Position numbers and translations under genes: made by a program
Shown: piece after piece, positions 3,907 through 6,412 of the stretch
Layout of the letters: each line of letters opens with the position of its first letter
Numbering within the stretch: the first letter of the stretch is position 1
Notes under the pieces: model-generated
Seen by the model: the letters and a program-made list of their open reading frames with translations, nothing else
Databases searched by the model: none
Told to the model about the DNA's origin: nothing
Source of the DNA: Bacteroidaceae bacterium
Lineage (GTDB): Bacteria; Bacteroidota; Bacteroidia; Bacteroidales; Bacteroidaceae
NCBI GenBank assembly: GCA_016284115.1
Contig: JAEEOD010000042.1
Span: 1-9,015 of the forward strand
DNA length: 9,015 nt
Direction of reading: 5' to 3'

Positions 3907-3930
3907 TAAGATGTTATCACAGAAAGAAAT
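3907..3930 (+). repeat. left copy of split direct repeat bracketing the accessory cassette
   Basis: This stretch holds TAAGATG (3907-3913) and CAGAAAGAAAT (3920-3930) separated by 6 bases. The same two blocks occur in the same order, separated by 2 bases, at 6438-6457, just after the dCTP deaminase-like gene. The repeat includes the start codon of the first cassette gene. Shared blocks of 7 and 11 bases at the two ends of one compositionally distinct cassette are unlikely to be chance alone, although the sequence is purine-rich. It could mark an insertion junction or the leader of a lost second copy. Confidence 0.5.
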
Positions 3931-4261
3931 AATGAACAATTGGGATGCAGTAAAAAACTTTTTGTCTCTGTGTGAAATTGAAAACGATAATGGCATCATC
4001 ACTATGTTCAAAGCTCAAGGTGTTTATATAGATAAAACGCATGGTAAGGCTATTGACATACCGCGGTGTAGTATGTTTTACGGTACTGACAAATACGGTG
4101 GGATGTCTCTAACTATTAGTGGTATAGATCCAATTATATATTTTTGTGAAATAAGTACTGCCTTTTGCAAGTTTAAGTATGAAGATGGCCTACTAAGAAT
4201 ATCTGGTAAAGACAGTTGGGGTACAGGCAAAGGGGATTATGAGATACAATTGCATCCTTAA
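3911..4261 (+). CDS. hypothetical protein, first gene of accessory cassette
   Basis: A 116-residue soluble protein that I do not recognise. It starts with a short charged, probably helical N-terminus (about 1-22) and continues as alternating hydrophobic/polar stretches suggestive of a small beta-rich domain (for example G-I-I-T-M-F-K at 28-34 and M-S-L-T-I-S-G at 65-71). The C-terminus carries G-K-D-S-W-G-T-G-K-G-D. There is no signal peptide, membrane helix or obvious catalytic motif. Codon choice is AT-richer than in the glycan genes upstream (22/60 GC at 3961-4020). It is 69 bases ahead of the next small gene and may be a partner, sensor or immunity component of the metallopeptidase/dCTP deaminase-like pair; that is inference from position only. 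Confidence 0.65.
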   Translation: MLSQKEIMNNWDAVKNFLSLCEIENDNGIITMFKAQGVYIDKTHGKAIDIPRCSMFYGTDKYGGMSLTISGIDPIIYFCEISTAFCKFKYEDGLLRISGKDSWGTGKGDYEIQLHP

Positions 4262-4280
4262 TCGATATATTCATCTACCT

Positions 4281-4311
4281 ATTGAAACTACTTAGTATTA
4301 AGCAAAGTTTG
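4281..4311 (+). promoter_or_regulatory. candidate Bacteroidota-type promoter inside the cassette
   Basis: ATTG at 4281-4284 and AAAGTTTG at 4304-4311 are separated by 19 bases. Each is one base off the Bacteroides housekeeping consensus TTTG-N19-21-TAnnTTTG. Transcription would start a few bases downstream, just ahead of the ATG at 4331. The match is short and the region AT-rich, so this is only a plausible site that could give the three downstream cassette genes expression independent of the capsule operon. Confidence 0.3.
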
Positions 4312-4330
4312 ATTCTTTATATCAAAACAT

Positions 4331-4636
4331 ATGGACAATAATTCGTTTGTATTGGGAATGTCTTCGAAACAACAGGATTTTACAAGTATTAGAATCTTGT
4401 TGCAAGTATCTATTGAAGAGACGGAATTCACATACAGACAGTATGTGTCAAGGATTGTAAGAGATGCTAAGCTAATCTTACAATCGCCATCCAACATCCT
4501 GTCTATAGATAGGGAATTGTTCGATTATTCTGTTTTCCTTAAAGATAGAGGTGCGGACTGGATAGGGCAACTTGATCCTGATGACTTAAAAGTTGATGAT
4601 ATAAAGAAGATGTTAGACATTTTTGAAATGCCATGA
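4331..4636 (+). CDS. hypothetical protein translationally coupled to the metallopeptidase
   Basis: A 101-residue soluble protein without a family I recognise. It has a mixed alpha/beta look: a hydrophobic strand-like S-I-R-I-L-L-Q-V-S at 19-27, a helix-like segment around 34-50, and an acidic C-terminal end with D-P-D-D-L-K-V-D-D-I-K-K at 82-93. Its TGA stop overlaps the next ATG as ATGA (4633-4636), the usual sign of translational coupling, so it is probably made in step with the metallopeptidase and may bind it. A partner, inhibitor or adaptor role is inference. No signal peptide, membrane helix or catalytic motif is visible. Confidence 0.7.
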   Translation: MDNNSFVLGMSSKQQDFTSIRILLQVSIEETEFTYRQYVSRIVRDAKLILQSPSNILSIDRELFDYSVFLKDRGADWIGQLDPDDLKVDDIKKMLDIFEMP

Positions 4637-5802
4637 ATCCTAAATACCTAGAATTAAGTCGCTCTCAACTAACACATGCTTGGAATCGTTCACGCTTTAA
4701 TCATTATTCAGATAAGCGTAAGCAGCAATTCCATGAGTGCTTAGGTTTATTGTATGAAGAGCTGATGAAGAAAAACTTCTCAGATCCTTCTTATACAAAG
4801 GATGAACTGAGATTCTTCCGCAAAGTTTTGGAGTTCTTTAAGGACAGCTTGGCTTTGCTAGACAATAATACGATTTCAAGTGTACCCCATGAACTCATTG
4901 AATGTTTGAATACTGCAGCAAGGCAATGGGTTTCTGACTTTGATGACTACATCATTGTTATGGAGGAGGGACCTTATGCAATTATACCACAGGTAGAAGA
5001 TTTTCGCTTGTTCTATGTCACCTTAAAAGCAAAATTGGGCGTAGAATTCAAATATATACTTCTTCGAGTGAGAATGCCACGACAGTTGGCTAGGGATTAC
5101 CTTACAAATGTATGCCTATTTCATGAACTTGGCCATTTTGTTGATGCGAAATATAAAATATCAGAGAGGTTAATTTATGATCTTTTTAATATTTGGGTGG
5201 GTGGAGAAAGAGTGAAAATTGATCCATGGTTCGTACCATCTGTGCCACCATTCATCGTGTCATCAACGCCAGGAGCACCTGTGACATACATTCCTGCGGG
5301 GTATCTTTTGTTTTTCTTGATGGAATACTTCGCTGATTTGTTTGGCGCACAATATGTCGGAGAGAACTATTTGAATTATCTTGAATATAGTTGTGATGAC
5401 ATTAATGCAGACGATCCTCAACATCCTTCCTACGGAAAGAGAAAACTCATGTATGAGGATTTTTGCAAAGGCCCGGATGCAAATGTCGTTTTGAAAATTA
5501 TTTTTGAAAAGACGTTAGCATTAACAAAACATGGGCTTACCAAAAGATACGTTGAACTAGACAATAGTAATATGTTAGGTCTAGTTCCTACAACTCTGAA
5601 AAGTACAGATGAGATGTTGTCTATATTTAAGATGGGGTGGAATGTCTATATGATGGGTGCTAAAGAGTTTGAAAAGGCAAATAACCTTATTCATCCTCTT
5701 GGTTTGGATCAAGTTTATACCATCGTGAATAATCTGATAGAAAAATCAATCAGTAATTATCTAATAATAACGGAATGGGAAGCTGCTAAAGGTAAAATAT
5801 GA
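4633..5802 (+). CDS. HExxH (gluzincin-like) metallopeptidase-domain protein, cytosolic
   Basis: A 389-residue protein carrying the zinc metallopeptidase signature H-E-L-G-H at 164-168 in a hydrophobic context (C-L-F-H-E-L-G-H-F-V-D). About 63 residues later comes E-Y-F-A-D-L-F-G-A at 231-239, which fits the ExxAD motif supplying the third zinc ligand in gluzincins. D-P-Q-H-P-S followed by K-R at 261-270 resembles the HP...R motif seen after it in M48-like peptidases. Unlike membrane M48 enzymes there are no clear transmembrane helices and no signal peptide, so it probably acts in the cytoplasm. The N-terminal 150 residues are helical-looking and charged and may recognise a substrate or partner. 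The gene overlaps the upstream small gene by ATGA and is followed after 7 bases by the dCTP deaminase-like gene, so the three are probably co-expressed. Exact family and substrate are not recognised. Confidence 0.8.
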   Translation: MNPKYLELSRSQLTHAWNRSRFNHYSDKRKQQFHECLGLLYEELMKKNFSDPSYTKDELRFFRKVLEFFKDSLALLDNNTISSVPHELIECLNTAARQWVSDFDDYIIVMEEGPYAIIPQVEDFRLFYVTLKAKLGVEFKYILLRVRMPRQLARDYLTNVCLFHELGHFVDAKYKISERLIYDLFNIWVGGERVKIDPWFVPSVPPFIVSSTPGAPVTYIPAGYLLFFLMEYFADLFGAQYVGENYLNYLEYSCDDINADDPQHPSYGKRKLMYEDFCKGPDANVVLKIIFEKTLALTKHGLTKRYVELDNSNMLGLVPTTLKSTDEMLSIFKMGWNVYMMGAKEFEKANNLIHPLGLDQVYTIVNNLIEKSISNYLIITEWEAAKGKI

Positions 5803-5809
5803 TAAGGCT

Positions 5810-6412
5810 ATGTTTCTGACAAAAGATGAGATAGAAGGTAGAATCTGCCGAGGCGAGCTGGTAATCAGCCCTTTGCTGGAGAAATCGCAAATCAGTAGTG
5901 TATCTGTTGATTTTAGGTTAGGTTGTGATTTCTTGGCTTCTATACAAGGGCGTGACCCATTTATTGACGCATCTATACGTGATGGAAAGACAGGTAATCT
6001 AAATAACTTCTTTCAAGAGACACGTAGACAGTTGGGCGATACCTTTATACTTCACCCAAGCCAGACTATATTAGCATCAAGCCTGGAATATTTCAAAATG
6101 CCAACAGACCTTATGGCATTGGCAAATATGCGTAGTTCTTATGCGCGATTAGGGCTAAATATACTATCGCGGTTAGAGCCAGGTTATTGTGGTTGCATCA
6201 ATCTGGAGCTGACGAACACAGGTAAAAATGCAATCAGGTTAACTGTTGGCGCATGCATGTTCCAGATGCATTTCTTAGAGATAAAGAGAGACCAAAGGTA
6301 TCACGATAGGCCAAGGAAATATCTTTGTCAGGTGAGACCACAGCTGTCAAACCTTCATGGTGATAATGACTTGAACATACTTGAACAAGTGTTTAAAGAT
6401 AATAATTCATAA
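5810..6412 (+). CDS. dCTP deaminase / dUTPase-superfamily protein (Dcd-like)
   Basis: A 200-residue protein of the trimeric dCTP deaminase family, whose members turn dCTP into dUTP in the cytoplasm. Visible family motifs are S-V-D-F-R-L-G at 32-38, L-H-P-S-Q at 81-85, R-S-S-Y-A-R-L-G at 108-115, E-P-G-Y at 123-126 and I-N-L-E-L-T-N at 130-136. E133 corresponds to the catalytic glutamate (E138 of E. coli Dcd), and S109 and R113 correspond to S111 and R115. Between R113 and R121 there are three fewer residues than in E. coli, and the conserved Ala-His before that arginine reads Leu-Ser, so activity or specificity may differ. A housekeeping dcd would not be expected inside a capsule locus. Its pairing with a metallopeptidase 7 bases upstream suggests an accessory, possibly phage-defence, function; stand-alone dCTP deaminases that deplete nucleotides on infection are known. 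The deaminase call is firm at superfamily level only. Confidence 0.85.
   Translation: MFLTKDEIEGRICRGELVISPLLEKSQISSVSVDFRLGCDFLASIQGRDPFIDASIRDGKTGNLNNFFQETRRQLGDTFILHPSQTILASSLEYFKMPTDLMALANMRSSYARLGLNILSRLEPGYCGCINLELTNTGKNAIRLTVGACMFQMHFLEIKRDQRYHDRPRKYLCQVRPQLSNLHGDNDLNILEQVFKDNNS

What the first reader, a model, noticed from the sequence alone, without database searches (positions are those of the whole stretch)
3911..6412. Four-gene metallopeptidase plus dCTP deaminase-like module inserted in a capsule locus
Two unknown small proteins, a cytosolic HExxH peptidase with an ExxAD motif, and a Dcd-family protein are packed together (ATGA overlap at 4633, 7-base gap at 5803-5809) between glycan genes, and the DNA is AT-richer in the lines counted (22/60 and 17/60 GC against 29/60 downstream). 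None has a clear glycan role. dCTP deaminases that deplete nucleotides are established anti-phage enzymes, and proteases are recurrent activators or effectors in defence systems. A protease-regulated nucleotide-depletion system is a testable inference; I know of no described system with this composition.
Basis: partly seen in the sequence, partly recalled or inferred. Interest (0 to 1): 0.72.

Follow-up and report, generated by a model that had tools for sequence, protein, structure and literature searches.

The report
Mobile peptidase and dCTP-deaminase gene trio
Three tightly packed genes, for a small helical protein, an unfamiliar zinc-type peptidase and an odd relative of dCTP deaminase, travel together through distant bacteria and often sit beside bacterial ubiquitin-like and immune genes, so they look like an unstudied stress or anti-phage module.

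Summary
The 116-aa ORF at 3911 is local. In 66 of 66 loci found through the peptidase (mostly Bacteroidota and Pseudomonadota) a Dcd lies directly downstream. These Dcds stand apart from 12 canonical Dcds sampled: they keep the catalytic Glu and RSSxxR but have a base-side loop 1-3 residues shorter. 22 of 66 loci hold multi-ubiquitin and E1 genes within 10 kb, in four arrangements; 0 of 20 control regions hold multi-ubiquitin or DUF6527 genes. One copy sits inside a type I restriction locus; others are cargo of D6-like phage-plasmids. A capsule role is unlikely. I favour a mobile stress/anti-phage module in which proteolysis controls a dCTP-directed enzyme. The unit is shown, the defence role inferred, the mechanism untested. 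No function was measured.

The parts
4331..4636 (+). first gene of the module: 101-aa helical protein, fast-evolving
   Evidence: Homologous ORF upstream of the peptidase in 36 of 37 Bacteroidota-type loci L001-L037; the exception starts at a contig end. AlphaFold2 model of five helices, pLDDT 86.3. No convincing family match.
4633..5802 (+). second gene: 389-aa gluzincin-like metallopeptidase, unnamed family
   Evidence: HExxH plus downstream Glu and Asp invariant in the 70 of 71 rows that have the columns. No Pfam, NCBIfam or PADLOC match of weight; phrog_24479 E 8.7e-25. Model pLDDT 92.5.
5122..5136 (+). HELGH zinc-binding motif, peptidase residues 164-168
   Evidence: Sequence; conservation.
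5323..5337 (+). EYFAD, probable third zinc ligand E231, peptidase residues 231-235
   Evidence: Invariant E231 and D235. The ligand role is inferred from gluzincins.
5810..6412 (+). third gene: 200-aa Dcd-family nucleotide enzyme of a separate group
   Evidence: TIGR02274 and PF22769 over cut-off. One side of a 98/94-supported branch against 12 canonical Dcds.
6131..6148 (+). RSSYAR motif of the Dcd, residues 108-113
   Evidence: Aligned to the same motif of E. coli Dcd structures; R108 in 71 of 71, R113 in 68 of 71 rows.
6206..6208 (+). catalytic-position Glu of the Dcd, E133 (aligned with E. coli E138, number recalled)
   Evidence: Glu in the 69 of 71 rows that have the column; PDB entries 1xs4 and 2v9x differ from 1xs1 at the aligned residue.

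Best explanation
This is a mobile three-gene stress or anti-phage module: a small helical protein, a gluzincin-like metallopeptidase and a specialised Dcd-family enzyme. SHOWN: the three genes are a conserved, tightly packed unit across phyla; both active sites are kept; the Dcds stand apart from the canonical Dcds sampled; the unit is repeatedly beside multi-ubiquitin/E1 operons (half of these with a CapP-like peptidase gene), once inside a restriction locus, and on mobile elements. INFERRED: the three proteins work as one complex; on infection or DNA damage the peptidase cuts its substrate (most likely the small protein, possibly the Dcd tail), and the Dcd then acts on dCTP or a phage-altered dCTP, starving replication. 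The capsule locus is only the site of insertion in this genome.
For: Dcd directly downstream in 66 of 66 peptidase loci; by first-start ORFs the junction lies between 112 bases of overlap and a 5-base gap in 65 of 66. Small ORF upstream in 36 of 37 Bacteroidota-type loci, and a second such cluster in 25 of 29 others. Active sites intact: peptidase in 70 of 71 rows, Dcd Glu in 69 of 71, the rest lacking the column. Dcd and peptidase distances correlate, Mantel r 0.86, 0 of 999 permutations as high, n 64; 0.70 within 35 Bacteroidota rows (shared descent alone predicts this too). E1-like gene in 22 of 66 loci, multi-ubiquitin in 21 of these by HMM and in the 22nd by Pfam, DUF6527 in 19; control regions 0 of 20 for multi-ubiquitin and DUF6527. 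Multi_ubiq in 21 of 50 module genomes, in the fetched flank in 19 of those 21, against 17 of 201 genomes of one order. At least 11 supported changes of the association on the Dcd tree. Module inside a type I restriction locus. Variable cargo of D6-like phage-plasmids. Found in only 2 of 201 genomes of one order, both already known carriers, so dispensable there.
Against: No defence phenotype or activity was measured. 44 of 66 loci show no E1/multi-ubiquitin operon in the held flank, some because contigs are short. Such operons also exist without the module in 16 of 16 regions looked at. PADLOC counts give no clean general enrichment: control neighbours also matched type I methyltransferase, mad2 and E1-like models. 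Bub operons themselves have not been shown to protect against phage (PMC13373217, passage). In 8 of 32 module genomes this Dcd is the only Dcd found. No match to the peptidase in the phage collection.
Confidence: 0.45

Rival explanations
1. Nucleotide sensor plus protease effector: the Dcd-like trimer reads dCTP or a phage-modified nucleotide, and a change in occupancy frees the peptidase, which cuts a host or phage protein. The small protein is an inhibitor or adaptor.
For: Shortened base-side loop and Gln in place of Asp or Glu in 66 of 71 Dcd rows point to altered substrate handling. Peptidase and Dcd genes abut or overlap. Trimeric phage dUTPases act as signals in SaPI induction (PMC5593958, start of abstract in the listing).
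Against: The deaminase Glu is kept in every row that has the column, 69 of 71, more than mere binding needs. The window's own residue is Glu, not Gln.
Confidence: 0.27
2. Non-defence stress or repair accessory: an extra dNTP-pool enzyme with a processing peptidase, induced with DNA-damage-controlled operons.
For: A CapP-like peptidase cluster recurs near the module in 11 loci, and capP models matched 11 of 317 neighbour genes. CapP responds to DNA damage and Bub may mediate general stress responses (PMC13373217, passages).
Against: Patchy distribution (2 of 201); phage-plasmid and restriction-locus locations.
Confidence: 0.16
3. Toxin-antitoxin or addiction module with the small first gene as antitoxin.
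For: Small, fast-evolving first gene; carriage on plasmids and phage-plasmids.
Against: Three genes with two intact enzyme active sites; no match to a toxin-antitoxin family in the libraries searched.
Confidence: 0.08
4. Capsule-locus genes with a glycan or CDP-sugar role.
For: Flanked by glycosyltransferase, rhamnosyltransferase-like, aminotransferase and sugar-transferase genes.
Against: Across the 66 other loci, the nine recurrent neighbour families are three ubiquitin-system families, a CapP-like and a CapH-like one, and four that I did not identify. No recurrent family was seen to be a glycan gene, but those four were not scanned.
Confidence: 0.03

Closest known systems
Canonical dCTP deaminase Dcd (dUTPase superfamily; TIGR02274, PF22769)
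   Same: Fold family, RSSxxR, catalytic Glu, C-terminal KY motif
   Different: Separate side of the tree; R-to-E stretch 21 residues in 69 of 71 rows against 24 (8 canonical) or 22 (4 canonical); mostly Gln where canonical rows have Asp or Glu; found next to the peptidase
DcdV/AvcD anti-phage dCTP deaminases (recalled; no paper on them was found)
   Same: Same reaction is possible: dCTP removal
   Different: Cytidine-deaminase fold with a P-loop domain as I recall; unrelated to this Dcd family; no PADLOC match
CapH+CapP regulators (PMC13373217 passages)
   Same: Intracellular HExxH peptidase in immune loci; a CapP-like cluster lies near the module in 11 of 66 loci (two of its members and the Shinella peptidase confirmed as capP)
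   Different: Module peptidase has no M78 Pfam match; where both occur it is a separate gene from CapP
Bub / group 6e multi-ubiquitin operons (PMC13373217 passages; PMC1779556 section 14)
   Same: Physical neighbour in 22 of 66 loci
   Different: The module has no ubiquitin-like, E1 or E2 gene; each occurs without the other; none in this window
SaPI Stl and trimeric phage dUTPase signalling (PMC5593958, start of abstract in a listing)
   Same: dUTPase-superfamily trimer as a possible switch
   Different: No Stl-like repressor recognised; peptidase partner instead

Membership tests
Canonical Dcd (TIGR02274) | Score over the curated cut-off | tested here: met
   120.9 against 92.8 bits
Canonical Dcd (TIGR02274) | RSSxxR and catalytic Glu | tested here: met
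   R108, S109, S110, R113, E133 present
Canonical Dcd (TIGR02274) | Loop length, and Asp or Glu after the loop | tested here: not met
   Loop 21 residues against 24 or 22 in 12 canonical rows: not met. Residue: the window has Glu, as 4 of 12 canonical rows do, but 66 of 71 family rows have Gln
Canonical Dcd (TIGR02274) | Housekeeping role | tested here: inconclusive
   Second Dcd over cut-off in 13 of 32 module genomes, weaker longer match in 11, none in 8; window genome not held
Anti-phage DcdV/AvcD | Cytidine-deaminase-fold domain | tested here: not met
   Pfam gives the dUTPase-like DCD as best match and no cytidine deaminase; no PADLOC model at E 1. The defining feature itself is recalled
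Gluzincin metallopeptidase | HExxH plus downstream Glu | tested here: met
   70 of 71 rows, the other lacking the columns
Gluzincin metallopeptidase | Fold match | tested here: inconclusive
CapP / M78 | M78 domain | tested here: inconclusive
   No Pfam or PADLOC match at E 1; a missed fold relation is not excluded
Bub operon | Multi-ubiquitin and E1 genes | tested here: not met
   None among the 10 window proteins scanned
Anti-phage defence system | Protection against phage | not testable with these tools
   Needs a plaque assay

The most novel reading that the evidence does not exclude
A previously undescribed immune module in which a metallopeptidase and a re-tooled dCTP deaminase form a proteolysis-gated nucleotide switch, in many hosts wired to a bacterial ubiquitin-like conjugation operon and its DNA-damage-sensing CapH/CapP regulator, so that conjugation, proteolysis and dCTP handling act as one response.
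Probability: 0.22. Interest if true: 0.9.

Novelty: new variant of a known kind. Interest (0 to 1): 0.7.

Why it matters
Proteases and dCTP removal are each known in bacterial immunity (recalled), but I saw no description of them joined in one unit in the open-access listings searched. The peptidase and the small protein have no family model in Pfam, NCBIfam or PADLOC. If the link to ubiquitin-like conjugation operons is functional, it gives a concrete handle on what those operons, still without a shown anti-phage effect (PMC13373217, passage), do in the cell.

Tried and rejected
Capsule or glycan role: judged unlikely on context in 66 other loci.

Four-gene unit: rejected; the 116-aa ORF is absent from the other 66 loci and its five relatives have longest contigs of 662, 2322, 1163, 21462 and 5143 bases, none equal to a peptidase contig among the 120 of 219 rows listed.

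Membership in the known anti-phage dCTP deaminases: rejected. Known fold for the peptidase: Foldseek gave nothing at E 0.001; the VIA second look gave weak gluzincin rows among unrelated helical ones. Small protein: no fold match at E 0.001. Homology of the two small-protein clusters: hhalign probability 49.8, E 0.00017 over 92 columns: suggestive only.

General defence enrichment by PADLOC: 317 of 351 listed neighbour genes were scanned in three alignments (A4 114 from L001-L021, A5 87 from L038-L055, A7 116 from L022-L036 and L056-L065). The 34 left out are the four of L037, the six of L066, L020:15051, L026:2195, L040:8898, L046:9650, and 20 of the 56 of L056-L065, chosen by hand to stay under the size limit. 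Control: 120 genes in 20 regions of 17.7-20 kb of the same genomes, 19 of them chosen at a dUTPase-like gene and one (L089) at a canonical Dcd; in L099 that gene lies at the region's edge, so its genes are not dut neighbours. capP matched 11 of 317 and was not among the 25 families shown for the control (53 matched there), so a single control match is not excluded. Other families do not separate cleanly.

The 12 canonical Dcds were picked by hand from the 13 genomes with a second Dcd over the cut-off (G027's not taken); the long Dcd-like proteins of 11 further genomes were not fetched.

Target-site duplication: no convincing flanking repeat. Promoter: TANNTTTG occurs 14 times against 7.7 expected but none marks the module start. 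Dcd scan of viral contigs: two loci, one the known phage-plasmid-type copy, the other a 32% match without the peptidase. Active-site passages sought in PMC10733785 gave nothing of use.

Literature: no listed title or abstract start describes a dCTP deaminase with a metallopeptidase partner or a Bub link to one. Searches returned nothing; two listed 20 of 228 and 20 of 118. Papers that merely held the terms, such as PMC12755741, were not opened. The library is open-access only and seems to lack the DcdV/AvcD papers; the Bub papers cited as Gong 2025 and Ye 2026 were not seen.
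Full report
WHAT IS THERE. The neighbours are glycan genes: family-2 glycosyltransferases, a PF14907 nucleotidyltransferase, a rhamnosyltransferase-like protein, a DegT aminotransferase and a sugar transferase. The window's genome is not held; the most similar module Dcd in the tree is that of Dysgonomonas mossii, 58% identical, so a Bacteroidota host is inferred.

THE UNIT IS THREE GENES. In 66 of 66 a Dcd-family ORF lies directly downstream. With first-start ORFs, the junction lies between 112 bases of overlap and a 5-base gap in 65 of 66, the exception being a broken peptidase (L034). 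A 101-aa-type ORF lies upstream in 36 of 37 Bacteroidota-type loci, L001-L037: within 20 bases in 34, and at 290 and 349 bases in L023 and L037, whose peptidases are broken; the missing one (L033) is cut by a contig end. A second cluster of such ORFs occupies the same place in 25 of the 29 others, mostly Pseudomonadota, including the viral contig; its homology to the first is only suggestive. The 116-aa ORF at 3911 recurs in none of them and has five relatives in 5.8 billion proteins.

The loci were found through the peptidase, so I tested the reverse with the Dcd in plasmids (92 records matched, 40 listed). Of the 40, 18 hold a Dcd at 41% identity or more to the query; the rest are under 35%. 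16 of the 18 also matched the peptidase. Of the two others, NZ_MK356558 matched the phage-plasmid region with the module at DNA level over 98% of the query, and the Sinorhizobium plasmid holds only the last 19 peptidase residues and a Dcd match split into two pieces. The 52 unlisted records were not seen.

WHERE IT SITS. All-against-all clustering of 1,258 neighbour ORFs (module ORFs included) gave 13 families present in 4 or more of 66 loci. Four are the module's own. The others are an E1-like ThiF protein (22 loci), a multi-ubiquitin protein (17), DUF6527 (16), a CapP-like peptidase (11 loci, each also with the E1 gene), a small partner of it taken as CapH by position (5), and four not identified (7, 6, 5 and 4 loci). 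HMM searches give 22, 21 and 19 loci for E1, multi-ubiquitin and DUF6527, with the multi-ubiquitin gene of the 22nd locus (L048) found by Pfam. Pfam confirms Multi_ubiq with an E2-like domain, ThiF with a JAB-like domain, and DUF6527 in the Rhizobium locus. Orientation falls in four classes: upstream on the same strand (8 loci), downstream on the opposite strand (3), downstream on the same strand (6), and upstream on the opposite strand (5). On the Dcd tree the association changes 14 times, at least 11 forced by supported branches; it is also somewhat clustered (6-8 of 500 shuffles as low).

In 50 module genomes, Multi_ubiq occurs in 21 and DUF6527 in 19. In 19 of the 21 the operon lies in the fetched flank; the exceptions are L051, where it is on another contig, and L062, where the module lies at a contig end. 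One order gives 17 of 201, the centre genome (a module carrier) included (order read as Sphingobacteriales from Pedobacter cryophilus); Fisher p about 1e-7, against a background from one order only. Control regions in 20 module genomes hold no multi-ubiquitin and no DUF6527; three hold a short ThiF-type protein; 22 of 66 against 0 of 20 gives p 0.002. The converse is weak: 16 of 16 fetched regions with a multi-ubiquitin hit, from 15 genomes in which one search found no module peptidase, hold multi-ubiquitin and E1-like genes (14 also DUF6527, 11 a CapP-like ORF) and no module. The module is therefore a frequent neighbour, not a necessary part.

Other settings: inside a type I restriction locus on an Emticicia plasmid; next to AbiH; downstream of multi-ubiquitin, E1 and DUF6527, with a capP-matching ImmA/IrrE-type peptidase and an HTH gene beyond, in Shinella; and on D6-like phage-plasmids of E. 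coli and Salmonella, in 8 of 5,426 E. coli genomes by near-identity search, all on plasmids. Phage D6 and two sister plasmids looked at lack it at the same place between a pmgF-like gene and mat. The phage collection gave no match to the peptidase of L043 by protein or to the E. coli trio by DNA. By PADLOC, capP matched 11 of 317 neighbour genes; beyond that, neighbours and control do not separate cleanly.

HOW IT MAY WORK. The data show two enzymes under strong constraint, kept together, with a small fast-changing partner, spread patchily and often next to operons that carry CapP-like genes. CapP cleaves the repressor CapH when it binds single-stranded DNA (PMC13373217, passages). I favour proteolytic control of a dCTP-directed enzyme, and hold a nucleotide-sensing Dcd that switches the peptidase as the main rival. 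Nothing here separates the two; the kept deaminase Glu leans to the first, the altered base-side loop to the second. Every step of mechanism is inference.

WHAT IS KNOWN. Multi-ubiquitin/E1/JAB operons were described as group 6e (PMC1779556, section 14 read). They appear to correspond to what a 2026 paper calls Bub operons (PMC13373217, passages read), which reports 219 of 544 Bub operons with CapW or CapH+CapP and no shown anti-phage effect; that equation is my inference. The text search of PMC1779556 found no mention of dCTP or deaminase. No listed title or abstract start joins these genes; the library is open-access only and most listed papers were not opened.

VERDICT. A real, conserved module that I found no description of.

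Noticed in passing
3911-4261 (+): 116-aa ORF upstream of the module with only five relatives in the protein database (58-100% identity) and no copy in the other 66 module loci; a local gene of unknown role.
   Followed up: yes
L079, L080, L105-L107: D6-like phage-plasmids carry different genes between the pmgF-like gene and mat: the peptidase-Dcd trio, a simB-like gene in D6 itself, or other small ORFs.
   Followed up: partly
L124:5924-6596: Sinorhizobium plasmid pSS05631b holds a decayed module: only the last 19 peptidase residues and a Dcd match in two pieces.
   Followed up: yes
L002 and L003, upstream of the small gene: A homologous gene of about 795 aa lies upstream in both; the L002 copy is the ribonucleotide reductase large subunit by Pfam. 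Chance or a dNTP link.
   Followed up: no
L108-L123: Multi-ubiquitin/E1 operons without the module, 11 of 16 with a CapP-like ORF nearby; their other neighbours differ from locus to locus.
   Followed up: partly
4633-5802: The peptidase matches phage protein family phrog_24479 (E 8.7e-25), which has no assigned function, so phage-borne relatives exist.
   Followed up: no
P0211: A Dcd homologue whose precomputed domains also include PF17293, recalled as an integrase arm-type DNA-binding domain; may be an annotation join.
   Followed up: no
window, both strands: TANNTTTG, recalled as the Bacteroidota -7 promoter element, occurs 14 times against 7.7 expected (2 of 200 shuffles as many).
   Followed up: no
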